This document shows positions 19-48,100 of a stretch of 64,000 nucleotides of DNA, in pieces. Positions within the stretch are counted from its first letter, which is position 1, and each line of letters starts with the position of its first letter. The notes beneath the pieces were generated by a model, which ran no database searches, was not told where the DNA came from, and saw only the letters and a list, made by a program, of their open reading frames with translations. Source of the DNA: Heterotrichella gracilis (lineage: Eukaryota > Sar > Xanthophyceae > Tribonematales > Xanthonemataceae); the NCBI GenBank assembly GCA_032358255.1, contig JAULBX010031481.1, positions 62,001-126,000 of the forward strand, read 5' to 3'. The position numbers and the translations under genes were made by a program.

Positions 19-1793
19 CTGTAGCCCGCAATGTTGGCCATTGAGCTGAGGGCATCAAAAGTCTGCGCCCTGCTCAGCGTCCGGGGGATGCAGTCCATGC
101 CTATTCAAAAGGGGAAAAGAACGTGAGAAGCACTTGCTACTGGTGACAGGTGGCTATTTGGGGTTCAGGGTTTGTTAGGGATTTCCCCAAACCCTGAACC
201 CTGAACAGGCTGTGCGGCAGCAGGAATGTTGCATGCCCTTGGCAGGCAATGGTGCAGCACCCTCGCCAAGCACAGTCATGGATGATGCAGGGGTTCAAGC
301 GCCATGAATAACACAGTGAGCAGGTCATGGGTTGGCGATATACCCCACACCCTACCCAACACAGCCAGTTGCTTAGCCTGCGGCAGCTCCACCGTGTGTC
401 AACCATGCATACACTTAAACCCTAAATTACAAACCCTACCAAATACGGTCATCTGTTTTGCCTGCAGCAGCTCCACCAGCTCCTTATTCTGGGCGGGGTA
501 GATGAAGCTGATCAGCCTGTGGACCAGAGCATGCGGGGTGGTTCACAAGAAGCCCGGTTTGGCCTAAGACAGTGGAGAACATGGCACAGGAAGCGCCAGA
601 TTAGAGTGAAGCGGCGCGAGATAGTGCGAGGATGGCTGCGCATCTGGCTGGACTGTGAACTGACCGCCCAAGCGAGTGCTGGCGAGTGCATTGGATGCCA
701 AACCCCAAGTACCTTGACAAGCCCTAAACACAGCACCAAGTACCCGTTACATGCACCATCACAGTTACAGCAATGCCAAGTACCTTGCTCCTTCCTTGAA
801 CTTTGCAACCTCTGTTGCCACGTCGGGTGGCCGGACCTTGAGCACTATGTCTTGCGCAAAGGCCTCGTCTGCACTGCCCAGGTGGGCCCCTGAGGACTCG
901 TACTCCGCGTTCTGCACGGGACAAGTGGACACACCTGGTGGGTATAGGGGTGTATGCAACCCACTTATGCACGACAAAGGAGTGGTGCAATCCAGGCGAA
1001 ACCATGTGCAGGTATGCAAGCAGGTGGTGGAGCAATATATGTGCAGCTACAACCCCAAGAGGCAAGGTAAAAAGCTCAAGCAAACCAGTTGCAAGTACTT
1101 TGCAGTCCCAGGTATTAGTTTGCAACCCAGATGCAAGGTAGTGAAGCAGGCGTGCGTACCGTGAACTTGGCATCTGCCCCTGCCCCATCCTCCACCACCA
1201 CCTTCTTGAACCCAGCCTTGAGCAGGGCTTGCACACCAGCAGGGGTGATGGCAACCCTCTTCTCGTTCAAGAAGGTCTCCTTGGGCACACCTGCACGTGC
1301 AGCAACGTATCAGTCACAGCTAGACGCATGCAACATAGACATGACACGATCCTGTTCGTGGCAGTGCCCCTCCAGGATAACCGGTGCAATACCAAGTCGG
1401 CTCTAACATTTTAACAGGGTATGAACGCCGGTGCTGGACATAGGGCGAGGTCCGTGCTAGAAAACGGCGTTTATCTTTCCGGTTTGGTGACGTACCCACA
1501 CTGAGTTCTGAGTATGGGATGCCTGCTGCGCTGGAGGCAAAGCTCTTGCTGTGCGTCCCATCAGCCGTCAGGCTCTTCTGTAGGCTGGCATCAGTCACTG
1601 CAGCAGCAGTTGTGCCCTTTGTCTTCTCCAGCAGGGCAGAGGGCCTGCACTGCTGATACCCGCGACGGGGCATCACGTCCCCCACCCGGCATGGCTGATG
1701 ATGGCCCCTCAAGAAGTTGCGGCACAGCGAGTTGCTGACCGTCGGTGCGAGGCTGGTCAAGCCATGCCTCTGTAACGCACCCAGGACAGGCAT
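19..1793 (-). CDS. NNT: NAD(P) transhydrogenase (proton-pumping), N-terminal part, runs off left edge
   Basis: Exons in gene order: 1793-1496, 1290-1160, 911-784, 516-440 and 100-19; the rest lies beyond base 1. All junctions keep phase. The protein begins with about 90 residues rich in Arg/Ser/Ala and poor in acids, a likely organelle presequence. It then enters the alpha-subunit domain 1 (alanine dehydrogenase/PntA fold): [19 protein letters not shown], then a segment ending [10 protein letters not shown], then [17 protein letters not shown], then [12 protein letters not shown] with [12 protein letters not shown]. These are classic transhydrogenase signatures. The enzyme couples hydride transfer between NADH and NADP to proton movement across a membrane. 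The start ATG at 1793 is a true ATG. The exon-4 donor is followed by AGGGTTT-like sequence. Family call is secure; the target organelle is inference. Confidence 0.9.
346..394 (-). repeat. Degenerate copy of NNT exon 4 3' end and donor
   Basis: Inside intron 4, 346-394 repeats with changes the block at about 431-479. That block is the last ~40 coding bases of exon 4 (the ELLQAKQ region), its donor and the CCCTAC run after it. Shared landmarks read on the + strand are CCCTACC, TTGCCTGC-like and GGCAGCTCCACC. It has no usable acceptor, so it should be removed with the intron. Confidence 0.6.
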
Positions 1794-2656
1794 CGTGCGG
1801 TATTGTGCCTGCGATCGCCCCTCGAGAAAGAGTGGATATCAAGGGCGAAGGCAGTAGCCCCGTACCAATCAACGTTGGTGATTGGCTGGGGTTTCAACAC
1901 ATGCTGCTTGTATTTGCAGCAGATCAAAAGGTCTCTTGTGAAAGTCTGGCAGGCATCGGTGAGTTTGCAGCCGTTATGCAGTCTCGGAAGTGGGTGGCGA
2001 TGTGTCGTAGCCCGATTGCAGGATGTAAAGTGGATCGCATCACGTGCATTCCAAGGTTTTGGCGCCAAGACAATTCCCGCCACTACCTAGCTGGGCAAGT
2101 TTGAAACTTGAAGCACTAGACAAGCCAGGAAGGTGGTTAAGGCTTACCTTGTGTCGATTAATAGCCTGCACGGAGTGTTACGCGAGCACACAAGCTCAAA
2201 AGTTAAGGACAAATCAGGGTAGTACCGTACTCCTGGTTGCATTGGTAACTGGGGTGCACCAACCCACTATGGGTATACCTGTGTTGGCCAAGGTAGCCTG
2301 CGTATGCGTCTATTGGGGGGTTTCCATGCTTGGGGTGGGCCAACTAGCGACTACCTGCCACCATATCAACAGCATGACGGCACCAGCCTGAAGATGCTAT
2401 GCAGATTAAGGAGGCCCTAACAGTATCAGCCGCGTTCGTCTTCGCAAACGTCAAGGGCGGGACAGAAGTAAGATTCCTACATTATTTTCCTGTGCCTTGA
2501 GCCGCACGTGGGGAAGGGTTCTGCCGCATGGTCCCTTGACTGTTTGACCGCCTTGACGCCTATGCATTGCATGCATCCGCCCAACTCCCACAGAGGACAG
2601 ACAAGAGTCTCTTCTATTTATCAAGGGCAAATAGAATACTTTCGTCGATTTTACAG
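1794..2656. other. Intergenic, divergent promoter region of NNT (-) and the Pro-rich gene (+)
   Basis: No coding exon could be supported here. The open frames have no family resemblance and no consistent splice borders. The region should hold the start sites of both flanking genes. No convincing TATA box was seen. Confidence 0.4.
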
Positions 2657-2659
2657 GCC

Positions 2660-14655: not shown

Positions 14656-17600
14656 ATGCGGTGGCGCGCGTCTGCAGGAGTTGTTGCTGCCTGCCTGGCC
14701 CTGTTGATCGTCCCAGGTGAGGAATACTGGTCGTGGTGTGCTCTATTCCTCACGTAATCGAGCTTCAGGAACGTGTGGTATTAACTGTGTATCGTGTGTG
14801 CAGCATGCTTGGCAGCAGACTTGTCGGACACGCCATCAGTCGACAATGGCATCGACACTGGAAAGGGGCAGACCACCAATGCCCAAGTACACAAACTGCG
14901 CGACACAGCTCAAAAGTTTGAGTTCAAGGCAGAGGTCAACCGGCTTCTCGATATCATCATCCACTCCCTGTACAGCAACAAGGACATCTTCTTGCGAGAG
15001 CTCATCTCCAACGCCTCTGATGCACTGGACAAGATCCGTTTCCTGGCCCTGACAGACAAGTCTGTCCTGGGCGAGGGCGATGCCTCAAAGCTGGAGATGC
15101 AAATAAAGGTTGACAAGGAGAAGAAGCTCATCACCTTGAGGGATCGTGGTATTGGCATGACCCGTGACGACTTGGTGGCCAACTTGGGTACCATTGCCAA
15201 GTCCGGAACCTCAGGTGAGCCAGGACTAGATAGCAACTAGCTGGGGCTCGTGGATTGTGGGTTAATGGGCTTGGTGCCTGCAAAGACTCGTTATCGTCTG
15301 AGCACTTCCTGTAAATGGGACATCTTGTGGTGGGTTGCTGAAGGCAGTACTATGGTGCCGTGCAGCGTTCCTGGAGAAGCTGCAGAAGGGTGGCGACGTG
15401 AACCTCATTGGCCAGTTTGGAGTGGGTTTCTACTCGGTGTACCTGGTGGCCGACTACGTGGAGGTCATCAGCAAGCACAACGACGACAAGCAGTAAGTGT
15501 GCAGTGTGAATTCATGTATGGCAGTGGGGGTTCATATGCTGACTCATTGCATGCAGCAGCAACGCATGCTTTGTGGTGTCCTGTACTTTTGCTGATATAT
15601 AGGCTCAACTACTGACACAATGGAAGCAGTCAGTAGCAGTCACTATGGCTTCATGTATGCTATTTGCCATGGGTGGGGTCAACTGCCGACCCACTGCAAG
15701 CAGCCAGTGTGCCGTGTGACTTCCCGTGTGCTTAACGTATTGCCACTTTTGCCAGGTACATCTGGGAGTCGAGTGCAGATGGCAACTTTGCCATTTCTGA
15801 GGACACTGAGAACGAGCCCCTTGACCGTGGAACCCAAATCAACATCTACATCAAGGTCAGTGGCAACCTGGCTGCTGGCTGCAAGCCAGAGGGCTTGCAC
15901 CCATTTCACACGCCTCCCAACGTGCGCCAGTGCCTCGGATTAGATACTGCCTAGGTATCGCCACGCCACTGCCACAGGAGGGGTGGCAGCCTTGCAATAC
16001 ATATTCTGCTACGCACCCGCTCCACACTCCCACCCGCGCACTCTGGGCACATGTGCACCCTCTCACGCTGCATGGCATCGAGCTCGATCGTCCCCCCCGC
16101 CCTGCAGGATGAGTGCCAGGAGTACCTCGAGGAGAGCAAGCTGAAGGACCTTGTGCACAAGTACAGCGAGTTCATCAACTTCCCCATCAAGCTGTGGAGC
16201 TCAAAGGAGGTGGAGAAGGAGGTGCCTGTGGAGGAGGAGGAGGACAAGGCCGAGGAGGCGGCGGATGACAAGGAGGATGCGGCGGCGGATGACAAGGAGG
16301 ATGACAAGGAGGACAAGGACGAGAAGGATGACGAGATCGAGGACGAAGGTGCGATTTGCTGGGCTTAGGGTTTAGGGTGCAGGGTTTAGGGTTTTGCATT
16401 GTGCAGCAGCGAGTTTGCTGAGGATGAGAAAGAGGGCAAGGACAAGAAGGCTGGGAGGTTGAGGATGAAGGTGCTATTAGGGTTTAGGGTTTTGCATTGC
16501 ATGCCACTGTTGAGAAGGATGTCGAGATCGAGGGCTGAGGTGGGATTAGGGTTTAGGGTTTTGCATCGCGCGCCACTGGCGTTGCTGAGCTGTGCCAGGG
16601 GGTCAGCTTGCGGCAGCAATCATGAAGGTGCAGTTACGGCAAGAACGCATGATTTCACTTGTCAGCTACATGTACTTGAGCAGTACAGCCATGTTCGCCT
16701 TGCGCCACCACCTTGGCCGGAACCCATTTCTGAATATATAGAGTGTCGAGGCGCAGGCCCCTCAGCATCTCATCCCGACCCCGCAGAGGAGGGGGAGAAG
16801 CCCAAAATTAAAATGTAAACTGTCACATGCCCCTCACCATCTATATTCCTTTTTTTGCAGAGGAGGAGGAGGAGAAGCCCAAGACCAAGACCGTGAAGGA
16901 GACTGTGCAGGACTGGGAGGTGCTGAACGACAGCAAGGCGCTGTGGCTGCGATCCGCGTCTGAGATCGAGGAGGAGGAGTACAAGAAGTTCTACCGGGCA
17001 ATCTCAAAGGTGAGCAGGAATGCACAGCCCATGGCGATGTACGCTAGGACAGGCCTGGCGGTATTTCAATTGGCCAAATTCAATACAAATGTTGGAAAAA
17101 TCGGTATTGACACGAGTCTGATGCTGAAGGGTGGGCAGTATGGTGGGTTTGCCGAAGTGCATCTGAATGGCATTGTGGCTTGGAAGATGCCATGCAGTGT
17201 CAATCCCGCGCATAGCGGCCCTTCTGAACACACAGCCTGTGCCTTGTTGCAGAACATAGCTTCAAACCCCTGTACTCTTACCCTTCACCCCTGCCTGCAA
17301 AACACCGACGACCCCCTCATCTACAACCACTTCCGCGGCGAGGGCGACCCAACCTCAAGGTCAAACCCTGAACCCTAATTTGCAAACCCTAAACCCTACA
17401 CCCATGCTTGCAGAACACCGATGACCCCCTCATCTACAACCACTTCCGCGGCGAGGGCGATGTTGAGTTCAAGGCCATCCTGTACATCCCCGAGAAGGCG
17501 CCCTTTGACATGTACGACAGCTACTACAACAAGAAGGCCAAGGTCAAGCTGTACGTGCGCCGCGTGTTCATCTCAGAGGACTTCGAGGAGCTGCTGCCAA

Positions 17601-22300: not shown

Positions 22301-22310
22301 AACTGTTTTG

Positions 22311-27400: not shown

Positions 27401-27596
27401 AGGCACTGTGAGAGCCACCACAAGCACTGCTGAAGAAAGCTGTCGAGCAGTCCTTGGGCAGCGGCTGGTGGTGGATGCAGAGGGCTGGTGCCTGGTTGGG
27501 CGGCGGGTGGACGCGGGTTTGATCCCGCGGGCTGTGGCGGGTGAGAGAGGGGAGCATGTGGAGCTGTGGGAGCTGAGGCGGGGCCGGGTGGCTTAG
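24479..27596 (+). CDS. METTL22: METTL22-like SAM-dependent protein methyltransferase
   Basis: Seven exons chain in phase to 501 residues: 24479-24716, 24944-25017, 25364-25508, 25704-25735, 25974-26144, 26353-26464 and 26863-27596. The order matches the METTL22 family: an early VLSDVH motif, MATPLGDVGLQVWRGALLLA, the SAM-binding loop LELGTGAGMAG, DVGSRALANCQKNVDANR, VRELDW, the motif AADVVYDDDLT, then LALEKRFNFTLRDMD and a final VELWELRR. Human METTL22 methylates Lys in nuclear partners; the substrate here is unknown. Between FDHLLSV and the C-terminal strand lies an insert of about 160 residues rich in Gly/Ala/Thr/Ser. It contains two copies of ARVDISQSPLGG, absent from animal homologues as far as I know. 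The start is a clean ATG in ACCATGG. Confidence 0.9.
25262..25334 (+). repeat. Short tandem repeat in METTL22 intron 2
   Basis: Four copies of AATGGAAGAT(T/G)TA lie in tandem, three of them followed by GTAAA, just upstream of the exon 3 acceptor. Confidence 0.85.
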
Positions 27597-27745
27597 GGAT
27601 AGGGTTTGGAGTTAGATTTTGGGCGTAGGGTTTACGGGGTAGGGTTTAACGGCAGAGTGGAGCTGTGGGAGGTGAGTTGGGGCCGGGTGGCTTAGGGGTA
27701 GGGTTTGGAGTCTAGGGTTTGGGGTTTGGAGGGTGTATAGTGTAG
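27557..27745 (+). repeat. Duplicated METTL22 3' end with telomere-like tail
   Basis: The last coding bases GTGGAGCTGTGGGAGCTGAG, GGGGCCGGGTGGCTTAGGG and the AGGGTTTGGAGT that follows are repeated at 27657-27710, with GAGGTGAGTT in place of GAGCTGAGGC. Both copies run into variants of TAGGGTTT. Confidence 0.9.
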
Positions 27746-28905: not shown

Positions 28906-28951
28906 TGGGACTGTAGCTACTGTATACAGCCGTAGTCAACACTGGTCCTGA

Positions 28952-29980: not shown

Positions 29981-32900
29981 ATGCTTCCAAGCAACACACC
30001 TGCAAAACCGACTGCCAACACCGGCGTGGTTTCTTCCACTGCCATAACCAGCAGTGACCTCCCAGCCACCACCAGTACCGTCAGCACCACCACCGCTTTG
30101 GTCACTATGGCCATACCCACCACCACCACCACCACCACCACCACCACCAGCAACGCCTCACCCACAGCCACAAAAGGAGAGTCCTCTCCCATTACAGTCA
30201 CAGCCACAGCCACATGTACAGCCACCGTCGGCAGCCTCGACCCGCATCTAGCACCAGCTGGAGCACCGGTACCAGAACCAACAACTGCTCCCCCACCACC
30301 ACGTCATCGCACCCAGGGTGATGCAGCCGCCACTAAAAACGCTGGGGGCGCATGTGACGGGATGGCACTCCTTGCGTTGGTTGACCAGCGCTGCGCCCCT
30401 GTGGGTGAGGAGGAGGCACAGGTGCTGAGTGCGCCGCGGCCAAGCTGGAAGGTGGGTTTGAAAACCCTTAAACCCTAATACCCACTCGTGGAGGTGAGGT
30501 GCAGGTGTTGGTTTGGAAGTGCACTTTCAACAGCCCAAGTTGGCTCCTTCTTGACATTCTCATGGATCCTGAGGGGATGAGCGGTACTTCTTAGGGATAT
30601 ACGTGTACATTCCTATTTCTGAACTGAAATGGTATTTGTTTTCCCCCTTGCATCCCATTTGTTATCATTAATTGTTTGCCTGACCTCCTTTGCAGCCCAT
30701 CCCACCCGGGCCCCTGCTTCCCAATACCAAATTCTGCGTGGGACAGATACAGCAGCTGATGGAGATGGATGGTGAGATGAGCCATGTCAAAGTCCAGCAC
30801 TGGCTGGGGAGCCATTTGTTCCACACGGTGAGCGTAGACCCCAGCTGGGGTTTGGTTGCACAAGTTCAGCTGCAAATGCGCCAGGTCGGGGTAGGCGGAG
30901 GATGGGCGCCAGACGGGGCAATTGGCCCTAGACCTACACACCAAACCCTAAACTTTCCGCCCTAAGCCCTACAGCACCCAGCCGCCTACAAAATGAGTTT
31001 GGGCGCCAGGTGCGCCGAGTGGTGCTGCACCCTAAACCCTACCCCACAACTTTCATAAACCCTAAAATAAATACCCACCCACCTACAGGACGAGGAGGGC
31101 GCCAGTTAATACTAACCCTAAACCCTAAACCTCTGCCTACAGGACGAGGAGGGGCGCCAGATGCGGCGGGTGGTCGCAGTCAAGCTTGCATCAGGCGACA
31201 TTGACTGGCTCAAGTGCCTCAAGATGCTGTTGCCCCAGCTGAGTCCGGTCGAGCGGATAGCCCTTGCCAGCAGCAATATGGTGGCGGCACTGGTGTGGTG
31301 GCTGGTGGAGCATGGCTATGGGGCGGAGGGGGGAGGAGAGGGGACAGGAGGGGCGCCTGGCGACGACGGTAAGATGTGTGAAGACAACAGCACAATGAAG
31401 GAAAGCGATGTACTACAGTCATAACGGGAATGGAATACATGCACGCTGCATGCATGGCAGCAGCCTGAGGGGCTTAAATGCTATAAACAAGACGAGTTGG
31501 AACCAATCCTGACATATTACAGTAACACTGCTGTGCTGGTGGGTTTGCAGTTATTTCCATTGCCCACACCGCGCTCTGACAGTGCATGCCTGCCTGCCTG
31601 TTACTGCAGCTTTCTGCTCTGAGGTCATCCGCCACAAACCCTAATCCTATACCCTAAACCCTACTGCGTACCTGGATTCTAAAACCCTCTTGCCCTGTGC
31701 AGCTTCCTGCTCCGAGGCCATCCGGCACAAACCCTAAATCATATACCCTAAACCCTACTGCGAACCTGGACCCTAAAACCCTATTGCCCTATGCAGCTGA
31801 GGCAGTTGCTTCCTGGTGTTCCTTTCTGCAGCCAACACCTTGATGTTCATGTTAGCTGATGTTCATTTTAGGGTTCTAGGGTTTTCCACACCGCACCCTG
31901 ACAGCTCATGCCCCTGCAGATTTCTGCGCCGAGGCCATTCGCTTCCTTGCGTACTACTCGGCTGCCCACCCCTTTTCCTCGCGCGCCCTGTGGCACAACG
32001 GCTGCGTGCGCGTGTTCACAAACATGGTCTTGGAGATCTTTGCAGATTTGGGGCAGGCCCCCCCCACACCACCGCCGCCACCCCCAAAGGGGGGTGCCGC
32101 ACAGCAAGGCTTCGTTGAAAAGTCTGGGATGCTGGTGGGGGGGCTCCGGCTGCTGGTGGCCTGCACAACAATACGTGAGTGCCATAATAATAATAATAAA
32201 ATAAAGCTCAATATGTTAAATCAATATATGTTTTGATTGAAAGATATAATGTACCCCAGCTGCTGGTGGCCTGCACAACAATACGTGAGTGCCAACTACA
32301 TAAATGTCAAGTTAAATTATTTATTTGACATATGCTTTTTTTTACGTTCATTGATCCAAGTAGTCAATATGCCTCGGGTGCTGGCGACATGCACAAGGAG
32401 ACATGAGCGCCAGATGAAGTAATGGTTTTGTGGTTGAACCACCCCTTTCAAATCTGTTGAATCATCTGTTTAAACCCAGTTTGACTGGGAATTCCAGATG
32501 AGCGCCGGATCATTTAATCACCATTTCCGTTGTCCATCGTGCCTCCTACACACCCACAGTGCCAACCAAGCCATGCTTGCTCACCACCTAGTATGCATGC
32601 ACAAGTGTGCGCTGCTTAGGGTTTAGGGTTTAGGGTTTGGGGCTTGTTTGCCACGCATTGCGCTGTTTAGGGGTTAGGGTTTGCTTGACACGCATTGCAC
32701 TGTTTAGGGTTTAGGGTTTGCTTGACACGCATTGCGCAAACCCTAAAGCATTGCGCAAGCATGCGCTGTCTCCTCCCCCCCGCCCATCTCTGTCCCTATT
32801 TCACCCCCCACCACCTCCCCCTGGCCCCCAGCCCCCCTCCGCGGCAGCTCCACGTGGAAATGCAAAAACCCTAAAGTGTACACCATAAACCTCCATAAAC

Positions 32901-35900
32901 TAAGCCCTGTCCTGGACCGCAGCCCATCCCCGCTGCAGCTCCTCGGGGAAATGCAAAAACCCTAAACTGTACACCCTAAACCCCCAAACACTAAGCCCTG
33001 TCCGGGACCGCAGCCCATCCCCGCGGCAGCTACTCATGGGATGATGAGAAGCTGAGGTGCAGCGAGGAGGCGCTGATTGCCACAGCCGCTGAGTGGAGGG
33101 AGGGGGTGCAGGGGGAACACATCAGGAGGGTGGCAAGGTATGGAGTGGACAGGGCATGACGCAGGGGCTGTAATAGACACATCACAGAGGAAATGCAGCA
33201 TTTCGTTTCCTATGTAGCGCCCCCTGGTCTTTTTGCAGGTGGTTTTTTCCAGAAGGGGCCATGGATGTATGCCCACGTTATATTGTAATTTGTCCCCATT
33301 TCTCAATTCGTTACCAATTACCATCTACCATCTACCATCAATCATTTATATCTACTTTTATATTTTCTATTTCCATTCGCCATTGTTTTTTGCCATTCTT
33401 TTACCATTACATCACATCGGTTCCACCCCTGGATATATGCGCACACATTAATTAACATCTACAATTACATTCCATTTAGAATTACCACTACACGTTGCCC
33501 CCCCTGGCCCCCCTGCAGGTGGCTCCTCTAGGAGAAGGTCATGGACAGATGCGCACACATTACAAGTACATTACAATTGTACTTGTAATGTGCAATTGTA
33601 CATTACAAGTACAATTGCGATCACAGTTACATTTGCAATTACAATCACAACACATTTAAAGTACATTACAGTATCGCCTCCTGTTCCCCCTGCAGGTGGC
33701 TCCTCCAGGAGGGAGTCATGGACACATGTGCGCACATTCTAGTAAGAGACCTCAAGGCTGGCTTGCGCATGGGCATGCAGGTGGCTCTCATCAATTTGAT
33801 GGAAAACCTGGTACTGCTGCTGCCCGGCGAGGCCCGCACACTGCTCGGTACTCACCCTAAACCCTATATCATAAACCCTCAAAACTTGCCTGCTTCTTCC
33901 CGGCACGGCCCGCACACTGCTAGGTAGGTACTTTTCATCTGATCGCTAAATTCAATCTGGTCAAAACCCTGCTGTCTACTGGATTTGCGATTGACAGATC
34001 TGCCCGCCACCCCTGCGGGTCGCAGACCTGCTGTTGGATTACCTAAGGATTACCCCCCTTGCAAACCTGACCTTGGATCGAGAGAGAGGATCACCTGTTT
34101 AGCGATTTTTCTCCCCCTTCCCATCACCATGCATATACTTTCAGGTGCTCGCTCTTGTGCACTGGACCCCCAATGCAGGCTGTCGGCACCCGCTGCAAAT
34201 CTTGCTTCTTGCCACATTACACCCCCTACTGGGGAGACACCGAATTCCCCACTGAAATCGCTGATTTATGCCCCGATATATAGCAGATGTAAGGAAAAAC
34301 ATTGGGCCTGAGTCTCCCCAGTGTGCATTACACCTGTGACCCACTAGAAGGAGAGGCCTTGGTGTAGCCCCCAGACCCCTAGCCATGCTTCTGCTGCCCA
34401 ACCCATCTTACATGCAACCCCTCTCTCCTACCTGCTTTCCCTGTCCTGAATTTCATTATTTAAACCCCCTCGCCCGCCTGCTTTCCTGTCCTAAAGTCCA
34501 TACTCTAAACCCGCTCGCCTGCCTGTTTCCTGTCAGGTGCGCACCCGCGCCTGGTCCAAACCCTCTTACAGCTGCTTTTTGCCAATTTTCCCATATTTAT
34601 TTTTACTGCAATTTCTAATTTTTTCATTCTTGTTCGTGGTATTATTTCTCAGGTGCGCACCCGCGCCTGGTCCCTACCCTCTTAAAGCTGCCTTTTGCCA
34701 ATTTTCCCATATTTTATTTTTACGGCATTTTCCAATTTTTTTCATTCTTGTTCATGGTATTATGTCTCAGGTGCGCACCCGCGCCTGGTCCCTACCCTCT
34801 TGCAGCTGCCTTTTGCCAATTTACCCATATTTTATTTTTACGGCATTTTCTAAATTTTTCAATCTTGTTCGTGGTATTATTTCTCAGGTGCGCACCCGCG
34901 CCTGGTCCCCACCCTCTTGCAGCTAGAATTCCAATCCGGTCTCTTCCAGCTGCACTATCAGTCCGGCCTTCAGCTGCTGATGCATGCTGTGGATGGGGGT
35001 GTGGTGCCCGGCTGGCAGCTCCTGACAGCAGACTCTCAGTCGTGGGAGTTTGTGATGCAGGTGAGGAGGGTAAATATATATACATAATGTACTGGGGAAA
35101 AATATTATTTTCTAACACGTTTTGTGTATTATAATACAAGCATGGGATTTTGTGATACAGGCAAAGAGGGTCATTTGTAGTGAATACCGTACGCCCTGAC
35201 CGCACGCCCTCTGCGCAGCTGAAGAAACACACAAATTAGGGTTTTGAGGTTCAGGGCTTAGGGTTTAAATAACGCACATGTGCACCTTCTGCCCAGCTGA
35301 TGCCACGCACAGTGTTCGGTTTTGACCTTTCAGGAATTAGGGTTTGCTAACGCACACAAACACCCTCTGCGCAGCTGAAGAAACTCCTGGCAATGAGGGA
35401 GGAAATGCACAGGCAGGGGTACACCGACCTCCGTGGTGCGGAGACGCTGAGGTACCAGGCAGGTCTGATGGCAGCCATGGCGGCAAGCTGCGAACGAATC
35501 AAGCGCAGGCACGTACCCTAAACCCTAAACCCTAAAGTGGGTCATATGGCGGTCAGTGCCGCAAGCTGGGAACAAATCAAGCGCAGGCACGTACCCTAAA
35601 CCCTAGACCCTTCACCGTCCGCATGCAAATGCACCCAAGCAAGGATCGACCCTGAAACCAATGCCTTACCGTAAACCTTAGGGGACATTGCTGGGTGGAA
35701 GGGACACCCGGTGAGGCACCGAGGGGGCCACAAGGCAGTGATTGCTGCATGTTGCAAAAAGATAAATTCAAATAAATTCAATTTTTTTTCATTTTTTCAA
35801 TTTTTTGAACTGGGGCTGGTTGCTCCATTGCAGGGCCTAGTTGCAAGAACCGAGTGCAGTCACGAATCGTAAACCTTAGGCCGTAAGGAAGCTGATCCGG

Positions 35901-38900: not shown

Positions 38901-40509
38901 ACCCTAAACTAGGGTTTCTACCCTTCCGCAGGCAAGCACCGCTCCTCCCGCGCTGCCAAGTGGCGCCTGCGCACTGTGGTGGATGACAACCTGGGACCAG
39001 GGGAGGTCAGCATGGACAGGGCACAGGGGGTGGTGCGGGTGGGGGGGGACCTTGAGCAAATGGTGGGTGCAACGTTTAGCCTATGTTCGTTAACACTGCT
39101 GATCATTGAGCTTATGTATGTCATCACTTTTGGTCATTGAGCCTATGCCATCACTCCTGATCAATGTCCAACAATGGACCCCCCTACACACAGGCCCACG
39201 TCATGCACTGCCTGCTGCCGCGCCTGGCCCACAAGGCTAAGGGGGTGGTGTGTGTGAGCGATACAGGGGAGGGAACACCAGCCACACCTGCGTATCTGCA
39301 ATCCCAGGGACTGACAGGGGTACAGGCGGGCAGTATTATTGCCCTTCCCAATTTCCCCCGCGGCATTGTGTGCGTGGGGTATGACTCCGTCCCGTATAAG
39401 ATGCTCCCCCTGGTTCTCAAGCTTGAGGAGATGGCTGCAAGGGATGTAGTGGATAGCAAGGGAAAGGTGGGGGCAGCATGATAAACCCTTAGCTAGGGTG
39501 AGGCAGCTGTAGCCTACAGTGTAGGCGTGTAAATTATGGTCACCCTAAACCCTTCTTCCCTAGCCCCAAATCTACCACAGAAACTCTACATCCCCAACCA
39601 CACACCCTCTTTCATTGTGCAGTTGAAGCAGGAGTGGCTCCCCATGTTCCCCGACAACCTTAGCCCTAAAAATCCTAAACCCTAAACCTTTCCTTCTTGT
39701 GCAGTTGAAGCAGGAGTGGCTCCCCCTGGTCCCACACAACATGTGGTTCCTCCTATTCCGCCCCCTTGCCGCGGACGATCCCCACACCAACCCAGGGGTG
39801 CTACTGCACAAGTACCAAGTCGTCAAGGAGCAAATTATTTTGCCAGATAAGCCGGATTCGGTCAACAAAACCCTGACAGTCGTGCGCTCAAACGACTTCG
39901 TCTCAGCCATGCATACCTGCGGGTTTGTACCCTCGCTGGTGTGTGTGGTGGAGGGTGGGGATGGTGGTGCGGTGGCGTATGCGTTCACAGAGCGCATTGG
40001 CGGCCATGGGCATTCACTGGATGTGATCCATGCGCCCTTTGGGGGGAATAGTCAGGAAGGTGAGGATGTGTGGTGGGAGACGTGCTGCATTTTGTGCTTG
40101 TTATGCTGTTTGTGTGTGTGCGACTGGAAGCCATCTGCTGTGGTGTGGTGTGGTGGGTGTAAGAAGTGCTGCAATATGGCCAACATGGGTATCGACTGCC
40201 AACTTTGCCTGGTGCGCAGGGGAGCATGGGGCGACAGGGGGTGCATCAAACCCTGCACGAGGGGGGACAGCACATGGCACCCATGCCAATCCAGACCCCC
40301 CCAAGTCAGCCCCCAAGGAGTGCCGCATGTGTGGCCTGAGACATAGGGAGATGCCCGAGGGTGCCAAGCTGATGAGCTGTAGTGGGTGCGGGGGTGTGCG
40401 CTACTGCGGCAGGTTGTGCCAGCAGGCGCACTGGAAGCAACACAAGGGGGAGTGCGCAGCAATAAGGAAGGGGAAGCAGAGTGTTGCAGGGTCTAGCGGG
40501 GTTGTCTAG
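29981..40509 (+). CDS. Large MYND zinc-finger protein with helical body
   Basis: Exons: 29981-30451, 30696-30827, 31143-31368, 31920-32174, (32260-32284?), 33030-33137, 33696-33847, 34888-35060, 35375-35508, 36171-36303, 36966-37097, 37491-37727, 38094-38284, 38532-38623, 38932-39062, 39194-39466, 39705-40059 and 40220-40509. With the bracketed 25-base exon the model is 1169 residues; without it one junction is out of phase. The N-terminus is Thr/Ser/Pro-rich with a Thr run from (ACC)n. The centre is mostly helical (examples MEMDGEMSHVKVQHWLGSHL, LKCLKMLLPQLSPVERIALA, VALINLMENLVLLLP) and may form an armadillo-like stack. The C-terminus is a clear MYND finger: CRMCGLRH, then MSCSGCGGVRYCGRLCQQAH, then HKGEC, with the expected Cys/His spacing. 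MYND fingers bind short Pro-rich peptides. Function is unknown. One intron appears to use a GC donor. Confidence 0.8.
30117..30148 (+). repeat. (ACC)n microsatellite in coding sequence
   Basis: About ten ACC units encode a Thr run in the first exon of the MYND gene. Confidence 0.95.
30985..31170 (+). repeat. Copies of MYND-gene exon 3 start with CCCTAAA spacers
   Basis: CTACAG, GACGAGGAGGGGCGCCAG at 31143 (real) is preceded by a near copy at 31085-31104 and a weaker one at 30985-31025 that still carries GGCGCCAGGTGCGCCGAGT. All are separated by CCCTAAACCCTA runs. Confidence 0.85.
31600..31960 (+). repeat. Copies of MYND-gene exon 4 start
   Basis: TGCAG followed by CTTTCTGCTCTGAGGTCATC at about 31612 and TGCAG followed by CTTCCTGCTCCGAGGCCATC at about 31702 mirror the real start at 31920 (ATTTCTGCGCCGAGGCCATT). 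Both copies break off into CACAAACCCTAA. Confidence 0.9.
32140..32510 (+). repeat. Copies of MYND-gene exon 4 end and donor
   Basis: GCTGGTGGCCTGCACAACAA, TACGTGAGTGCC occurs at the real exon end (32150-32182) and again at 32262-32293, preceded by CCCCAG. A diverged copy with GTGCTGGCGACATGCACA lies at 32378, and ATGAGCGCC scraps at 32403 and 32499. Confidence 0.85.
32610..32770 (+). repeat. ~45-bp minisatellite with TTTAGGG
   Basis: Three units of the form TTAGGGTTTGCTTGACACGC, ATTGCGCTG, lie in tandem in the intron. The array ends where TTTAGGG switches to CCCTAAA. Confidence 0.85.
32830..33050 (+). repeat. Three copies of an acceptor plus exon start in the MYND gene
   Basis: GCGGCAG/GCTGCAG followed by CTCCACGTGGAAATGC (32836), CTCCTCGGGGAAATGC (32938) and the real CTACTCATGGGATGATG (33030). 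The first two run into AAAAACCCTAAA and are followed by the same CCTGTCC-GGACCGCAGCCCATCC text. Confidence 0.85.
33231..33745 (+). repeat. Three copies of the exon start encoding RWLLQEGVMD
   Basis: TGCAG-GTGGxTxxTxCAGxAGGxxxxATGGA occurs at 33236, 33523 and the real 33696. The middle copy has a TAG in place of CAG. The intervals are AT-rich. Confidence 0.85.
33557..33618. repeat. Two consecutive perfect hairpins in an intron
   Basis: Arms of 14 bases (ACATTACAAGTACA) with a seven-base loop occupy 33557-33591. Arms of 10 bases (GCAATTGTAC) with a seven-base loop occupy 33592-33618. Confidence 0.9.
34537..34925 (+). repeat. Four tandem copies of an intron/exon-start block, ~117 bp period
   Basis: CAG followed by GTGCGCACCCGCGCCTGGTC starts at 34537, 34653, 34771 and 34888. 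Only the last continues as a real exon. The intron text between (TTTTTGCCAATTTTCCCATA, then TTCATTCTTGTTC and GGTATTAT) is repeated too. Confidence 0.95.
35035..35620 (+). repeat. Further exon-edge copies in the MYND gene
   Basis: The donor end GTGGGAGTTTGTGATGCAGG at 35042 recurs as ATGGGATTTTGTGATACAGG at 35143. The acceptor/start CTCTGCGCAGCTGAAGAAAC at 35365 recurs at 35209 and, weaker, at 35288. The exon end AATCAAGCGCAGGCACGTAC at 35497 recurs at 35574. CCCTAAA runs follow. Confidence 0.85.
36045..36610 (+). repeat. Copies of both edges of the MYND-gene exon at 36171-36303
   Basis: The start TATGCAGGGCTTCACAAGCA is preceded by TATGCAGGGTTTCACAAGCT at 36051. The exon end (CTCCAGCAGCGCCTGATGGC, then GCTGGTTxGT) recurs three times, near 36370, 36448 and 36552, with CCCTAAACC-type spacers. 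Confidence 0.85.
36850..37010 (+). repeat. Copy of the exon start encoding EYSMGKDSTM
   Basis: TGCAGGAAAGCTACTCAATG at 36862 is a decayed copy of the real acceptor and exon start at 36961-37000, separated by CCCTAAACGCTGAACATAAA. Confidence 0.75.
39612..39740 (+). repeat. Copy of the exon start encoding LKQEWLP
   Basis: TGTGCAGTTGAAGCAGGAGT and GGCTCCCC occur at 39618 and at the real acceptor (39699-39726), with CCCTAAA between. Confidence 0.95.
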
Positions 40510-41546
40510 GGTGTAGGGTTACTGTAGGGACTTGCAGTGTTGTACAGAGTTTTGTATGATAAATGTAATGCTGCTGATGCAGAGGCGGGGGGTTGAGGCA
40601 GGTGCCTAGCACAGTTGTTTTTGTAAGAGGTAGGCTTTAATGCTTCATGGAGGGCGTTCTGTCTACTGGAATCTACCATAATGGTATATTTGAATCCTGT
40701 ACCCTATGTATAGTGTCCGCCCACTGGTCTGATCATCAAATGACACCTGGGGTGCCAGTGTACTCCACTGGATGACAAAGAACGGGTGGTGGTGCAGAGC
40801 TGGGATGGTAAAGGAAAGTTGCAAGATACATTGCAACCTTAGGCTTTTTTAATTAAAGGAAACCTCCTTTAAAGATCCCATTGGCCCAATCTGCCCAGTG
40901 CTAGCGCACAGCGTGGTGAGTGTCAATTGGGCACAGGCAAACTTTGTGTACTCACAGTCACATCACAGTGTACTGGTATTGAAATCCATGCATGCTGTTA
41001 GCCGTGGCGACTGTGGCGGGCTGGTGGCTGTACAATTGATGACATCATTGTACATGACATGCATCTACACCCTCAGGCTAGCTGAAAATCATTGGTCTTG
41101 GCAGGTGGTATTGGGCCAGTCTGAAACTGCCATGCATGGACCGGTGCATGGTGGAATTTTCGTCAAAAAGATTCCTCTTTTTGTGTCCCCAGGCCTGTGC
41201 ACCAGGTGCTTTTGCCTGCATCCAAAGGCACGTTGTGCGCTTGCCAAGTCACGTTTCATTCGGCATCCTTGTCTGCCGAGAGCATCCTTGTCTGACTCAT
41301 GGGCACTGGAGGCCAATCGCACGTTAGGCAGGCAGGGACAAGGCTTGGGCCCTCGACAGCCCCATTGGATGACTACAACAGCTGAGCATGAATGTTCTTG
41401 AGGGCTTCGAATATGCTTTCATGTGACGCAAAACGTGAAAGTCAAGGAGCCAGTAATGAAGCTGCCTGCGTTCTCAGGAGAATGTGCTGACCGGCAGCCT
41501 TCGGTCTGAGAGTTCACTTCAAGTGGAGGCCTTGAGACGCTGAGGA
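40510..41546. other. Intergenic between the MYND gene and the cupredoxin-like pair
   Basis: No coding exon was supported. The open frames have no splice logic or family match. Confidence 0.4.
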
Positions 41547-41554
41547 TATAAAAG
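41547..41554 (+). promoter_or_regulatory. TATA box of cupredoxin-like gene 1
   Basis: TATAAAAG lies 147 bases upstream of the ATG. The following leader (GCTGCCAGGTTTG through AACATCACT) is conserved before gene 2 at about 45000, which supports transcription from here. Confidence 0.5.
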
Positions 41555-41700
41555 CTGGCATGCCTCCACTGTGTGCAAAGTAGTGATTGCTGCCAGGTTT
41601 GAAGCGTGTGTTCAGGTCTTCCATCCCCTTAGGTCCATCCTAACCGACAGCAACATCACTAGCACAGGCAGTGCTCGATTCTGAGCTTGACAACGTCGAC

Positions 41701-43692
41701 ATGAAGTCCCATACCATGCTGATCCTCGCCCTGGTGGCCATGGTGGGCTGCACCTCTGCTGGTGGGTCAAGCCAGTGGGTTTGGCTCTACTTGAAACAAG
41801 CGTTTGATCTGTTGACGCCCTGTGTGTGTGTGTGTGTGTTGTGCCTGGCTGTCACCTGTGGGCGTTTTCCTTCTTTCGTGGTAATTGAAGTTTGCCACAG
41901 TGACACACTGTGTCGTAGCCTGTTTTGGGCCGCGCAGTGTGCCGCATGGTGCCATCCTGTGCAGCACCACTCAGTCTGCCTTCTTTCCTTTTACAAACAC
42001 TCAGCGCAGTCTGTTGCATTGCGCATGGTGCGCTGCTACACTGGTTTGTCGTGTTGACAGCACCTTTTTGTGGTTCAACCAACCATTTTTTCATGGTGCA
42101 TAATGGTTCTTGAGGCGAGTGGAAGCTCCCCAAGGCTTGGTAATGCACTCTCACGATCCAGAATGTGAATATAGGCTATAAAAAAGCCTGACTTCCACAC
42201 CTCCTGTTGAGCTGAATGCACCCATGGGCATGCAATTCAAGGCAAATAGCAATTGCGCAACTATGGCTCCTAGCAATTAGGCAACTAGCAACAAGGCTCG
42301 TGTATTCAAGGTGCCTATTAATGTTGATACTGATCAGCGAATTGCTGTCAACAAATCAGTAATCCTGTTCCCTATGTCCCTGCAGCCACCACCGTCCCCT
42401 TTGACTTTGGCCGCCCCTGCACCCTCCTGGGCACCCCCTCTGCCAGTGAGATTGTGTCTAGCACCGGTGGGGAGTGCGCGTCATGCGGGACGGGGGCCAA
42501 TGCGGTGCCATCCGGCAAGAACTGCATCTTCAAGGTGAGAGCACATTGTCAACCCAAAACCCTAAAACCTAAGCGCAGCGCCACAGGGACAGAAGTGAGA
42601 AATACATGAAGTGAGGGTACATTGGTACATTGACTGAAGCAAATGATTGATGGATTGATTGATGCACTACATGCAGTAAATGTGAAAGTTAGTATTTTAT
42701 CACAATGACCCCTGTTGCCACAAGCACCACACTTGCCACACTGCCCTGGCTCTCTTCACACCCCGCTCAACAGCCTGCAATGATTTAGACTCTAAATCAC
42801 CGATATTCATAAAAAAATCACTTGATATCAAGTCAGAGTACAGCACATGCAATATGGCTTGCGCCTATTAACGGTCCAGGGCGCATTCACAACCCTGCTT
42901 CACTCGCTGTAAAAGGAAGGCGGCGGCATCTTCCAGTGCATGTAGGTCACTATGTTCCATGGCACTTTAAAACCATGCATCCATGTGACACACATTTCAT
43001 ATGATTTAAAACGCCCCCTTGCCCCGCAGCCCGTCGACCTCAAGGTTGGTGACAGCATCGCCTTTGGCTACCACTCCTCCACACACAACCTGTACCTGGA
43101 CTCCGCTGCCTGCGCGTTCACCAAGGAGATCTGTCCATCCGCACCATCGTCCCAGATCAACACCAACTCTCCTTGCACTTACACCTTCAACACCCCAGGT
43201 GCGCAAAGCAATAATTGATGTCAAACTTTACTTGTAGCCATGGTGTCAGTCTACTTGCAGGTTGTTTCTGGACACTCAGTACGCTTATCCTAGGCATTGC
43301 CTCAGTATGCTATTCAGCAGGCCACAAAAATACGCTTGCAATCCGCGAATGTTTAGCTGAGCACTCCAATGTGGTTGCAAATCACCACAGCAGCGCTGCC
43401 ACGTCATGCAGGGGTAGGGTTCTGTTGTGGGCCCCTAAGGGTTGGCAAGGGTGGATGTTATGGTCTATTTATGTACGGTGCATTACTAAAACAAAGCTCC
43501 ATTGGCGCTGCGTCTTATTGCAACGACCAGGGTGATGGATCAATGAAATAAGAATACTTTTCAATCAACTGATTCTAACATCATGCTTTTGCAACCACAG
43601 GCACCTACTATGTGAGTGACAAGGCTGGCCCCCCGGCCCCCGATGACTACTGCCAGACCTTTGCTTCGTACCTCCAGGTCAATGTGTCTTGA
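41701..43692 (+). CDS. Secreted cupredoxin-like protein, copy 1
   Basis: Exons 41701-41761, 42386-42534, 43030-43198 and 43601-43692 give 156 residues. MKSHTMLILALVAMVGCTSA is a signal peptide. The mature part begins TTVPFDFGRPC and has eight Cys, including CASC. LKVGDSIAFGYHSSTHNLYL matches the first copper-site strand of phytocyanin/plastocyanin folds, with a His in THN. The last strand, CTYTFNTPGTYYVSD followed by YCQTFASYLQVNV, matches the usual YYFxCxxxxHC.xGM strand. The ligand Cys is replaced by Ser and the second His and Met are absent, so a blue copper site is unlikely. This resembles the way early nodulin-like proteins lost copper. The location is secreted or cell wall. The fold call is from motif pattern only. 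Confidence 0.7.
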
Positions 43693-45103: not shown

Positions 45104-48100
45104 ATGAAGTCCCAGACCATGCTTATCGTCGCTCTATTGGCCCTGGTGGGCTGCGCCTCTGCTGGTGGGTCAAACAATTAGGATTGGGTCTACTGTAACC
45201 AAGCGTTTGATGCGTTGACGCCCTTTGTGTGTGTGTGTTGTGCCTGGCTGTCATCTGTGGACGTTCTTTACCCACCCCTCTACCACTCGACCCAGCCCAT
45301 CTTTGACGCCAATTTTGCCAGTCCAGTACTGGTGATACCTAGGTCACTAGTGCTTTGTTCAATGGTCTTCCACAATGCGCACATACATACACACCAAGTG
45401 GAGCCTCCCACCCCCCCCCCACCCTCCTCCCCACCTACCCTATTAAGATGGGCAGGGCCATGCATGCCACGTTTGGGTCCCTGCGTACCCGTTTGCAGTG
45501 CGCTTGCTGCAGGCATAAATTTCCATGCACCCTATAGGGTATATATGGCACAAAGCTTTGTGCCACAGACTTGAACCCTAACCCTAACCCTATCAACCCT
45601 ACCCCTCCCATTAACATCCTAGTATCATCTCCACTGTGGGGTGGCAGAGCGTACGCTCTCTTTCTTAGACTCTTGATGAAGTTTGTGTTGTAGGTAAACC
45701 CGCTTTAGCTACGTCCTGGGCACCATGCATCAATGTGCCCATGGTGCCCATCTGCGCCAACATGGCATGCAGCACATGTGCCTTTCTGTCTTTTCTTTCC
45801 AAACACTGCCGCATTACGCATGCGCTGCTACGCTGGTTTGTGGTGTTGGCATCACGTTTCTGTGGTTTGAGCCGGAGGACTGATATATCATTAATATATT
45901 AAAGTCCTCCTGATTTAAGGCATGAGGCATGTTCTCATGACATGGCGCATGATGGCGCATGAGGCGACTGGGAGGGTGCATGCATCAACTTATAGGCTTC
46001 CGCTTGGTAATGCACTAGCACAATTCAGAATGTCAGCAATATTCTATAAAAGACCTGAAGCCGGCATAATGCTGAATTGTCCTGTCGCATGCCGCAGACC
46101 TGACCAGATTCTGCACTTCTTGTCTTGACCTAAATGCAAGCAGCAAGTAGGCAACTAGCAACTAGGCTCATGCGTCTGTTTTATTTAATGGCAGGAATCG
46201 CCAACACCACACACAGTGCACCTCATCAGGCTGGAATTGCAACCAGTTTGCACAAGTACTAGCACTATTCCCTCCCCGCTCAAGGCTTAGCCCCCTATAC
46301 TACCGCTTTGCACTAAAGTCAATAATATCGATGTTACACTTGTGTCCAATCAGCTCTTATTTCTTATGGAAGGTGCCTTATGGTAGGGGAACCAGTGGAC
46401 AGATGGGCAATGCCCTTCTCTTCGCTAAATCCTCTTTCTCAACAAACGCCCCTGTTCAAGGACAGGCTGCGTAGATATTTATTCATATACTTATTTATTT
46501 GTGAAAGGTGCCTACCGCTATAATAATTAATGAATTGCTACCACAAACTACCAACCTTGTCCCCTTGACCTTGCAGCCACAACCGTCCCCTTCGACTTTG
46601 GCCGCCCCTGCGCCCTCTTTGGCAGTCCCTCAGCCAGTGAGACTGTGTCAAGCAGCGGTGGGGAGTGCGCGTCATGTGGGACGGGGGCCAACGCGGTGCC
46701 ATCAGGCAAGGCGTGCGTCTTCAAGGTGAGGGCAGATTGTTAATTGTAAACCCTAAACCCTTAACCTTTAACGCAGCACCGGTGGGATAGGGCTGCCTGT
46801 TCAAGGCGAGGGAACCATGTTAGCTGTAACCCTAAACCCAAAACCCTAAAGCTTTAAGGCAGCGCCCGTTGGGATAGGACTGCCTGCTCAAGGTGAGGGA
46901 CCATTGGGGCATTCCATTGGGTGTTCGCTTCAATGCATTATAATGCCATGCTTCAGGTAATCAGGGAAAATCACTCTGTTGTCACAATGACCCACACATA
47001 TGACCTCTGTAACCACATGCAGGCGCCACAGAGCACTAATTTAATTAATTAACCCGCGTTGTGCGTAGTGCCACATGGTTGCAGCCTGATTCATTGACCG
47101 CACCTCAAATTTAACGCCCTGGATTGCGCACGTGTGTGAGCTATAAATGTGCTACGCGTGATGCAGCAGTGCTTAAAAATATAATATAGAAAAATCAATT
47201 ATCACTGCTGCATCACGCGTAACGCATTAATAGCTCAACACACGTGTGCAATCCAGGGCGCTGCCTGAGCACAGATATGCTTATCATATACCATGTAAGG
47301 AAAATGTCTAATTTCAGAGCCAATGAAATGGAATAGACACTTATAAAGAATGATGTTGTATCAGATATGTGCTTGTATTATCAGCATGGCATTGTCAATC
47401 TGCCCACTCCCTTGGCTCCTGCATACCTTGCTGCAATCTACATCACATCCATCAATATTTTTGAAAAATTATGTGATCATTTCACAGCCCAGCACATGCA
47501 ATATGGCTTGCGCTCACTGACTGGTTCAGGGCGCATCTCCAACCCTGCTTTTAGGGTTTAGGGTTTAAGAGATCATCAACTGGCCCAGGGCGCATTCACA
47601 ACGTTGCTTCACTGGCGGTAAAAGGAAGGCGGTGGCACCTTCCAGTGCATGTAGGTCACTGTGTTCCTTGGGCACTTTAATGCGGTAAATACAGGCTGCG
47701 TAGCTATTTATTTATTTATTTATTTAACGCGGTGAAAGGAAAGGCATGTGCACCTTCCAGTGGCAATGTGTTCCATGGGCACTTGAAAGCCACGCATCCA
47801 TGTGACGCACCCTTTCATATGAAATACACCGCTCCCCTGTGCATTCCAGTGTGCTGCATGGGGACTCGCACATCCAAGTCACGCACAATCCATGTGAACA
47901 ACAATCCATGTGAATAACTATTCCTTTTAAGCTCTTGCCCCGTAGCCCGTCGACCTCAAGGTCGGTGACAGCATCGCCTTTGGCTACCACTCCTCCGCGC
48001 ACAACCTGTACCTGGACTCCGCTGCCTGCGCATTCACAAAGGAGATCTGCCCCTTGGCCCCATCGTCCCAGATCAACGCCAAATCTCCTTGCACATACAC

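What the first reader, a model, noticed from the sequence alone, without database searches (positions are those of the whole stretch)
346..47000. Window-wide tandem amplification of exon edges with telomere-like spacers
Nearly every multi-exon gene (NNT, Pro-rich gene, pseudokinase, HSP90B, universal stress protein, METTL22-like, MYND gene, cupredoxin 2) carries partial copies of its own exon ends or starts, together with the adjoining splice site, in the adjacent intron or 3' flank. Copies are usually separated by TTTAGGG or CCCTAAA. They occur at both donors and acceptors, on both strands, in 2-4 copies, often at 90-120 bp period. Only the copy nearest the exon body stays coding. This suggests one recurrent process (break repair with telomere-like additions, or template switching) that lengthens introns and supplies spare splice sites. 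I know of no named system that matches.
Basis: partly seen in the sequence, partly recalled or inferred. Interest (0 to 1): 0.85.

Follow-up and report, generated by a model that had tools for sequence, protein, structure and literature searches.

The report
Exon edges copied into alga introns
In this green-alga-like genome, short pieces of genes, especially the edges of exons with their splice sites, have been copied again and again into the neighbouring intron, often with telomere-like DNA between the copies, which looks like the scar of one recurrent break-repair process that lengthens introns.

Summary
In 314 kb sampled from this 68.5 Mb genome I found 114 clusters of local direct duplication. 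A looser scan gave 288 direct versus 12 inverted hits. Of 456 introns, 35 carry a copy of the upstream exon end and 34 of the downstream exon start; randomly drawn other exons gave 0 and 0. Exon edges are over-represented against uniform placement: 49 edge/intron pairs to 23 purely intronic, 0.28 to 1 expected. Telomere-like heptamers occur in 44 of 101 spacers, so "often", not "usually". They are an intron feature (243 intron, 17 intergenic, 1 exon), concentrated 20-60 nt inside splice sites. Paralogs give empty sites for two duplications with telomere-like filler.

Best explanation: repair of staggered breaks with fill-in and filler capture, filtered by coding selection. It resembles published tandem duplications at breaks and telomeric-repeat insertion in mammals. 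A telomerase-priming prediction failed. Copied splice sites look mostly intact (29 of 44 donors, 25 of 43 acceptors); use is untested. Why introns and exon edges are favoured over intergenic DNA is open. Exons are predicted, without RNA.

The parts
346..477 (+). direct pair in/next to the NNT-like gene (minus strand), CCCTAAA in the spacer
   Evidence: gene = AlaDh/PNT N-terminal domain
16297..16578 (+). HSP90B exon end (predicted donor 16349) plus partial copies downstream in the intron, TTTAGGG between
17280..17460 (+). HSP90B exon start (predicted acceptor 17413) with an upstream copy in the intron; CCCTAAA spacer; the copy's AG is lost (TGCAAA)
18580..19018 (+). HSP90B exon end + donor + TTTAGGG-like unit in four copies at about 113 bp; only one can be coding
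22732..23019 (-). universal stress protein gene: exon-edge duplication without telomere heptamer
   Evidence: Usp domain
27558..27723 (+). 3' end of methyltransferase-like gene duplicated, degenerate TAGGG spacers
31605..31798 (+). 93-94-bp unit with CCCTAAA and a TGCAG word, two copies, in a predicted intron
32820..33035 (+). 91-bp unit with CCCTAAA, 2.4 copies, at a predicted exon start (acceptor 33013)
33460..33738 (+). acceptor-edge duplication without telomere heptamer; in paralog L020 both 7522-7554 and 7730-7773 match the copy at the exon
35462..35611 (+). exon-end duplication with CCCTAAA after both copies
39615..39740 (+). acceptor-edge duplication with CCCTAAA spacer
46714..46904 (+). 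cupredoxin-like gene 2, donor region: unit already containing CCCTAAA duplicated; paralog near 42534 has one copy
47501..47624 (+). polarised event: segment (first copy to 47550), filler TTAGGGTTTAGGGTTTAAGAGATC (47551-47574), segment again (47575-47624)
42851..42915 (+). empty site in cupredoxin-like gene 1: single segment, no telomere repeat
47615..47790 (+). polarised event with a non-telomeric (TATT-containing) filler; paralog has one copy
58161..58294 (-). polarised acceptor-edge event in an F-box-like gene: copy 58294-58252, filler with TTTAGGGTTTAGG, copy 58205-58161 at the acceptor
54074..54121 (-). single-copy acceptor edge in the paralog

Best explanation
A recurrent local break-repair process duplicates about 35-125 nt of a gene in direct orientation and leaves a filler between the copies: U-X-V becomes U-X-filler-X-V. 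The simplest mechanism is a break with long staggered ends: both overhangs are filled in (as CST-Pol alpha primase does at 3' overhangs in mammalian cells) and the ends are joined with captured filler, which in about two fifths of cases contains telomere-like TTTAGGG/CCCTAAA. Copies inside exons are mostly lost to selection. A copy that overlaps an exon edge survives because the copy next to the exon body is used and the other lies in the intron. This makes introns longer and leaves intact-looking decoy splice sites. Shown: duplications, fillers, direct orientation, empty sites, edge excess (on predicted exons). Inferred: staggered breaks, fill-in enzymes, source of the telomeric filler.
For: 114 clusters per 314 kb; 288 direct vs 12 inverted; spacer median 46 nt, copy median 68 nt, identity median 84.6% in 81 simple pairs, 66 of them with a spacer of 12 nt or more; three segment-filler-segment events absent from paralogs, two of them with telomeric filler; telomeric motif 3.8-3.9 times denser inside clusters than outside, both near splice sites (13.5% vs 3.6%) and in intron interiors (7.0% vs 1.8%); none of 38 clusters holds both TTTAGGG and CCCTAAA, 4 of 61 if any rotation counts; in 61 of 68 junction-spanning copies the partner lies on the intron side; telomerase RNA-binding domain present in the genome; published tandem duplications at breaks (PMC8355091, abstract and introduction read) and telomeric insertions with direct target duplication (PMC7215372, passages).
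Against: If telomerase extended a broken 3' end, TTTAGGG should abut the first copy and CCCTAAA the second; this is not seen (14:11 vs 13:6, p = 0.54; with copies free of the motif 4:5 vs 10:2, p = 0.16, the wrong way). Intergenic DNA has about five times fewer duplications and motifs than predicted introns, which a random break process plus coding selection does not predict. Exon edges exceed uniform placement, so breaks or survival are not uniform. One duplication copied a pre-existing telomeric stretch. 57 of 101 spacers have no telomeric heptamer. No repair gene was tested and no reads were seen.
Confidence: 0.55

Rival explanations
1. Replication slippage or unequal exchange: telomere-like and other low-complexity stretches in introns act as misalignment points, so units made of exon edge plus telomere are multiplied head to tail.
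For: Regular arrays of 3-4 units (18580-19018 at 113 bp, 34533-34924 at about 117 bp); the 46747-46904 unit already carried CCCTAAA in the paralog; 33 of 114 clusters have more than one matching pair.
Against: 81 of 114 clusters are single pairs, 66 of these with a spacer of 12 nt or more; 57 of 101 spacers have no telomeric heptamer; two paralog-polarised events gained a telomeric filler that the paralog lacks at that place.
Confidence: 0.2
2. Splicing function: telomere-like motifs are kept 20-60 nt inside splice sites because they help splicing (G-runs at donors, C/A-rich stretches before acceptors), and the duplications are secondary.
For: Heptamers peak 20-40 nt inside both splice sites; genome-wide AGGTGNGT...TTTAGGG 807 near vs 299 far...CCCTAAA 375 vs 214, CCCTAAA...TTGCAGG 411 vs 229 (no far count was made for TTTAGGG...TTGCAGG, 292 near); orientation bias G at donors and C at acceptors, Fisher p = 3.3e-4.
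Against: No trade-off with a branch-point-like CTNAC (19/112 vs 44/258, p = 1.0); both orientations are enriched at donors in the sample; 171 of 375 introns of 200 bp or more have no heptamer.
Confidence: 0.12
3. Birth of new introns by tandem duplication of an AG|GT site inside exons, with these copies as the remains.
For: Donor and acceptor flanks of the same intron match in register at 50% or more in 6 of 470 introns, 0.76 expected; one clear case in L025 (forward coordinates 826-992; listed as 9009-9175 of the reverse strand).
Against: Only about 1% of introns show it, and one of the six is a mis-spliced prediction in HSP90B; the usual pattern is one edge copied into one intron.
Confidence: 0.06
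4. Assembly artefact.
For: Tandem repeats and telomeric repeats are error-prone in assembly.
Against: Copies have diverged (median identity 84.6%); the pattern is in 25 of 26 sampled loci; (TTTAGGG)3 occurs 834 times against 0 for the reversed word; paralogs share one event (58.2 and 62.8 kb).
Confidence: 0.02

Closest known systems
Small tandem duplications at staggered breaks (CST-guided Pol alpha-primase fill-in, Schimmel et al. 2021, PMC8355091, abstract and introduction read; 'patch-mediated' duplications in rice and paired-nick duplications in Arabidopsis are recalled, not read)
   Same: Direct tandem copies of tens of bases next to a break
   Different: Here fillers are long (median 46 nt), often telomere-like, and the copies are old, dense and mostly inside genes; no enzyme tested
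Interstitial telomeric sequences inserted during break repair in rodents, primates and horse (PMC2246262, PMC7215372; passages read)
   Same: Telomeric repeats at internal sites, empty related loci, sometimes direct duplication of the target, none of the human ones in exons
   Different: There duplication accompanies 6 of 130 rodent, 4 of 25 primate and 3 of 66 horse insertions (2 more horse ones within complex changes), and the 31% of human ones in introns is said to fit random insertion; here they are concentrated in introns, splice-proximal and often multi-copy
Tandem repeats of green-algal introns (PMC3887541; passages read)
   Same: In Chlamydomonas and Volvox repeats are densest in introns and rise toward intron-exon junctions
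   Different: No hit for telomer-, TTTAGGG or CCCTAAA in that main text, and no copied exon edges in the passages shown
Intron gain by tandem genomic duplication (PMC4974935, PMC2891723; seen in a search listing only)
   Same: Duplicated exon sequence with splice sites
   Different: Here existing introns are enlarged; the in-register donor/acceptor signature is rare (6 of 470)

Membership tests
Interstitial telomeric insertion at breaks | Telomeric repeat at an internal site, absent from a related empty locus | tested here: met
   47551-47574 and the F-box-like 58.2 kb filler, absent at that place from a paralog; paralogs, not orthologs
Interstitial telomeric insertion at breaks | Orientation and position consistent with telomerase extending a broken end | tested here: not met
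   p = 0.54 and 0.16
Interstitial telomeric insertion at breaks | Telomerase gene present | tested here: met
   two neighbouring matches to Telomerase_RBD on one strand of contig C626
Tandem duplication at staggered breaks | Direct orientation, short, with or without filler | tested here: met
Tandem duplication at staggered breaks | Depends on Ku, CST and Pol alpha-primase | not testable with these tools
   needs mutants; presence of these genes was not searched either
Intron gain by tandem duplication | Donor and acceptor flanks of one intron match in register | tested here: not met
   6 of 470 introns vs 0.76 expected: above chance but rare
Introner (mobile intron) elements | Many different introns share one element sequence | tested here: inconclusive
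   16 inter-locus matches in 314 kb; one element of about 45-55 nt lies in four predicted introns of four loci, at varying distances from the splice sites; no family that would account for the 114 clusters
Green-algal intronic tandem repeats | Densest in introns, rising toward junctions | tested here: met
   telomeric heptamers: both; duplications: densest in introns but level along the intron

The most novel reading that the evidence does not exclude
The process is targeted: breaks or priming occur 20-60 nt inside introns, next to splice sites, in transcribed genes, and are patched with telomere-like DNA while the exon side is copied. Introns of this lineage would then grow, and keep acquiring spare splice sites, through a repair route coupled to transcription or splicing, which would explain at once the intron confinement, the splice-proximal telomeric motifs and the excess of exon-edge copies.
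Probability: 0.2. Interest if true: 0.85.

Novelty: new variant of a known kind. Interest (0 to 1): 0.62.

Why it matters
If the sample is typical, the genome holds some 25,000 such clusters (114 per 314 kb scaled to 68.5 Mb, an extrapolation), each a readable fossil of a repair event with a filler and, at exon edges, a constrained reference copy. That makes long-standing questions testable in one genome: how introns lengthen, where telomeric repeats enter chromosomes, and whether decoy splice sites made by mutation feed alternative splicing. It also warns annotators that duplicated exon edges can be mis-spliced in gene models, as happened in my own HSP90B model.

Tried and rejected
Telomerase-primed filler (orientation against position in the spacer): no association. 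Telomeric C-strand as substitute branch point: no anti-correlation. An early null that shifts finished pairs at random gave only 51 of 103 clusters with a junction-spanning copy, against 37.7 +/- 4.5 anywhere and 42.7 +/- 4.8 within genes; it treats intron-intron and edge pairs alike. The class test (edge/intron 40 against 17.9 +/- 3.8, intron/intron 20 against 31.7 +/- 4.4) and uniform placement of the source segment replaced it. A level coverage profile along introns first looked like evidence against exon-edge enrichment; I dropped that reading because an intronic duplication covers intron twice and an edge one covers the exon once. Segment by segment, the last 40 nt of exons have a local copy in 10.0% and the first 40 in 9.3% of cases, intron segments in 3.1-8.3% (score 18 or more). 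Exon/intron pairs (18) are partly suspect, since such pairs should be rare unless the junction lies at the segment's end or an exon is mispredicted. A donor-half/acceptor-half orientation test was negative (p = 0.42); the later test on the first and last 100 nt of 375 introns was positive. The first gene-finder run was absurd and dropped; the second chained genes and served only as starting values. Even the final models still chain some neighbouring genes (2399-21119, 30107-43692), so some intergenic DNA is counted as intron. 33 tiny internal predicted exons were masked before the count. Other genomic copies of the two polarised genes were sought; apart from the paralogs already in the window the only matches were to the TATT repeat and the hairpin. 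The species was not identified; a size-based paper search gave nothing. No second algal genome was available, so 'more than in other algae' is untested.
Full report
What was examined. The window is G000:C886:62001-126000 of a 68.5 Mb genome in 903 contigs. The genome has 43 matches to the chlorophyll a/b-binding family and a telomerase RNA-binding domain, so it is a photosynthetic eukaryote; the green-alga label is inference, and the species was not identified. To test the finding beyond the window I took 25 stretches of 10 kb at regular places on eight other contigs. Window plus stretches make 314 kb. Because no annotation exists I wrote and self-trained a two-strand gene finder: 65 genes, 482 introns, median intron 295 bp, donor MAG|GTGNGT, acceptor TGCAG|G. 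It has no RNA support and chains some neighbouring genes. As a check, its HSP90B model aligns to solved endoplasmin, and five of seven other window proteins hit Pfam domains (AlaDh/PNT, Usp, protein kinase, lysine methyltransferase, BTB). The cupredoxin-like and F-box-like names have no Pfam support and are labels only.

The observation. Local self-comparison finds direct duplications almost only. In the first 264 kb there were 169 direct hits of 30 nt or more at 30-500 bp offset, and none in one dinucleotide shuffle per locus. In 314 kb there are 186 such hits in 114 clusters and 1 inverted local hit. A looser ungapped scan gives 288 direct against 12 inverted hits. In 81 simple pairs the copy length is 36-125 nt (median 68), the spacer median 46 nt, the offset 71-226 bp, and the identity 73-95% with median 84.6% (5-95% ranges). 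Offsets fall into two groups, 60-120 bp (47 of 81) and 160-250 bp (26 of 81), with 6 between and 2 beyond; the looser scan shows the same dip only mildly and more short and long offsets.

Exon edges. The last 50 nt of an exon have a copy in the following intron in 35 of 456 introns, and the first 50 nt of the next exon in 34 of 456, against 0 and 0 for a randomly drawn other exon (score 18 or more; at 14 or more 44 vs 2 and 52 vs 0; introns up to 900 bp). In 61 of 68 junction-spanning copies the partner lies on the intron side; the duplicated segment typically has 43-52 nt of exon and 45-57 nt of intron (medians). The pair classes of the 114 clusters are 49 edge/intron, 23 intron/intron, 18 exon/intron, 11 mixed, 8 exon/exon and 5 touching intergenic DNA. 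Uniform placement of the source segment predicts 0.28 edge pairs per intronic pair; observed is 2.13. Purifying selection on the exon copy can lengthen the time for which an edge pair stays recognisable by at most about twofold (my estimate); allowing for this the excess still has P = 2.7e-8. So the exon-edge association is supported, with the caveat that it rests on predicted exons.

Why the copy next to the exon body stays coding. In HSP90B (18580-19018) the exon end is present four times; two of the copies, both taken into the model by my gene finder, align to the same 26 residues of endoplasmin, so the protein needs one. Copied splice sites are mostly intact: GT in 34 of 44 donor copies and AG in 35 of 43 acceptor copies; 29 and 25 score within 2 units of the site in use. 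Whether they are used is not known.

Telomere-like motifs. TTTAGGG/CCCTAAA: 243 in introns, 17 in intergenic DNA and 1 in exons (1.51, 0.28 and 0.011 per kb); the reversed word gives 29, 5 and 12. Of 375 introns of 200 bp or more, 204 hold a telomeric heptamer in some rotation. Density peaks 20-40 nt inside the donor and 20-40 nt before the acceptor. Genome-wide word counts agree: after AGGTGNGT, TTTAGGG 807 within 30 nt against 299 at 120-150 nt, CCCTAAA 375 against 214; before TTGCAGG, CCCTAAA 411 against 229, TTTAGGG 292 near with no far count. These words are proxies for splice sites, and a GGGT-type donor favours the G-rich word. The orientation bias (first 100 nt: 60 introns with G, 50 with C; last 100 nt: 31 G, 72 C; p = 3.3e-4) is moderate, and an earlier half-intron test was negative. 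The motif and the duplications are linked: in clusters 13.5% against 3.6% of bases near splice sites, 7.0% against 1.8% in interiors. Yet 57 of 101 spacers of 12-170 nt have no heptamer; none has both orientations. At cluster level 0 of 38 hold both exact words, 4 of 61 if any rotation counts.

Polarised events. Tandem paralogs in the window serve as outgroups. (a) Cupredoxin-like gene 2, 47501-47624: segment, TTAGGGTTTAGGGTTTAAGAGATC, segment; gene 1 at 42851-42915 has the segment once and no telomeric repeat. (b) Same intron, 47615-47790: two copies around a TATT-containing filler; gene 1 has one copy. (c) F-box-like gene at 58.2 kb: the acceptor edge is present twice around a filler with TTTAGGGTTTAGG; the paralog at 54.1 kb has it once (its own TTTAGGG lies further upstream), while the one at 62.8 kb shares the duplication. 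(d) 46747-46904: here the unit that was duplicated already contained CCCTAAA, present once in gene 1. So new filler (a, c) and re-duplication of old telomeric stretches (d) both seem to happen; loss in the paralog is the less simple alternative.

Where it happens. Duplications number 1.54 per kb in introns, 0.28 in intergenic DNA and 0.25 in exons. The intron/intergenic ratio is 5.4 (bootstrap over loci 2.9-14.3) for duplications and 5.2 (3.5-8.9) for the motif; 18 of 23 loci agree in each case. Exon depletion is expected from selection. Intergenic depletion is not explained; intergenic segments here are short (median 709 bp), so they may be mostly untranslated regions and promoters, but this was not tested. 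Chaining of genes puts some intergenic DNA into the intron class, which should blur and not create the contrast.

Mechanism. Segment-filler-segment in direct orientation is the product expected when a staggered break is filled in from both sides and joined. Schimmel et al. 2021 report that CST-guided Pol alpha-primase does this at 3' overhangs (PMC8355091; abstract and introduction read). Insertion of telomeric repeats at breaks, with direct duplication of the target in a minority, is documented in rodents and primates (PMC2246262, passages) and horse (PMC7215372, passages). My attempt to show that telomerase itself extended the broken end failed, so the filler may equally be captured telomeric DNA or older intronic repeats. 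Confidence in the break-repair reading is 0.55.

Known or new. Chlamydomonas and Volvox introns are known to be rich in tandem repeats that rise toward the junctions (PMC3887541, passages), so part of the distribution may be a general green-algal pattern. I found no description of telomere-patched exon-edge duplication in the listings of six searches aimed at it, nor in the passages seen of a Coccomyxa and a Trebouxia genome paper (PMC3446292, PMC12712428); this covers only the open-licence library. I class it as a new variant of known repair scars, with unusual gene confinement and exon-edge bias. No other algal genome was compared.

Noticed in passing
L022:6810-6863, L033:4392-4447, L030:1726-1779, L015:5311-5354: A shared element of about 45-55 nt (85-93% identical) in four predicted introns on four loci; in all four it reads antisense to the predicted gene in the orientation printed; no Rfam match at those places.
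   Followed up: partly
L015:2395-2676: Signal recognition particle RNA gene (Rfam Metazoa_SRP model, 128.9 bits).
   Followed up: no
47115-47260: 148-nt inverted repeat (81% identity, MITE-like hairpin) in the long intron of cupredoxin-like gene 2, without counterpart in the paralog's intron.
   Followed up: partly
33556-33617: AT-rich palindromic stretch (TACATTACAAGTACAATTG-type) inside a duplicated acceptor region.
   Followed up: no
L020:5784-9649 and window 31117-37740: A sampled stretch happens to hold an old paralog of the window's 30-37 kb gene; the start of one exon shows local copies in both, either shared ancestry or a repeated hot spot.
   Followed up: partly
L026: Very dense local duplication: 10 of the 103 clusters lie in these 10 kb, including four copies of one exon end with TTTAGGG spacers.
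   Followed up: no
L009:2953-3105, L011:1241-1405, L013:9180-9271: A dispersed element of about 90-165 bp, up to 97.8% identical between loci, one copy in a predicted intron and two in intergenic DNA.
   Followed up: no
G000:C76:114191-114622: Another array outside the sample: donor plus TTTAGGG unit repeated at about 96 bp, seen in the pattern listing.
   Followed up: no
41.6-49.4 kb and 53.3-63.8 kb: Two sets of tandem paralogous genes with divergent introns, useful as natural outgroups for intron changes.
   Followed up: yes
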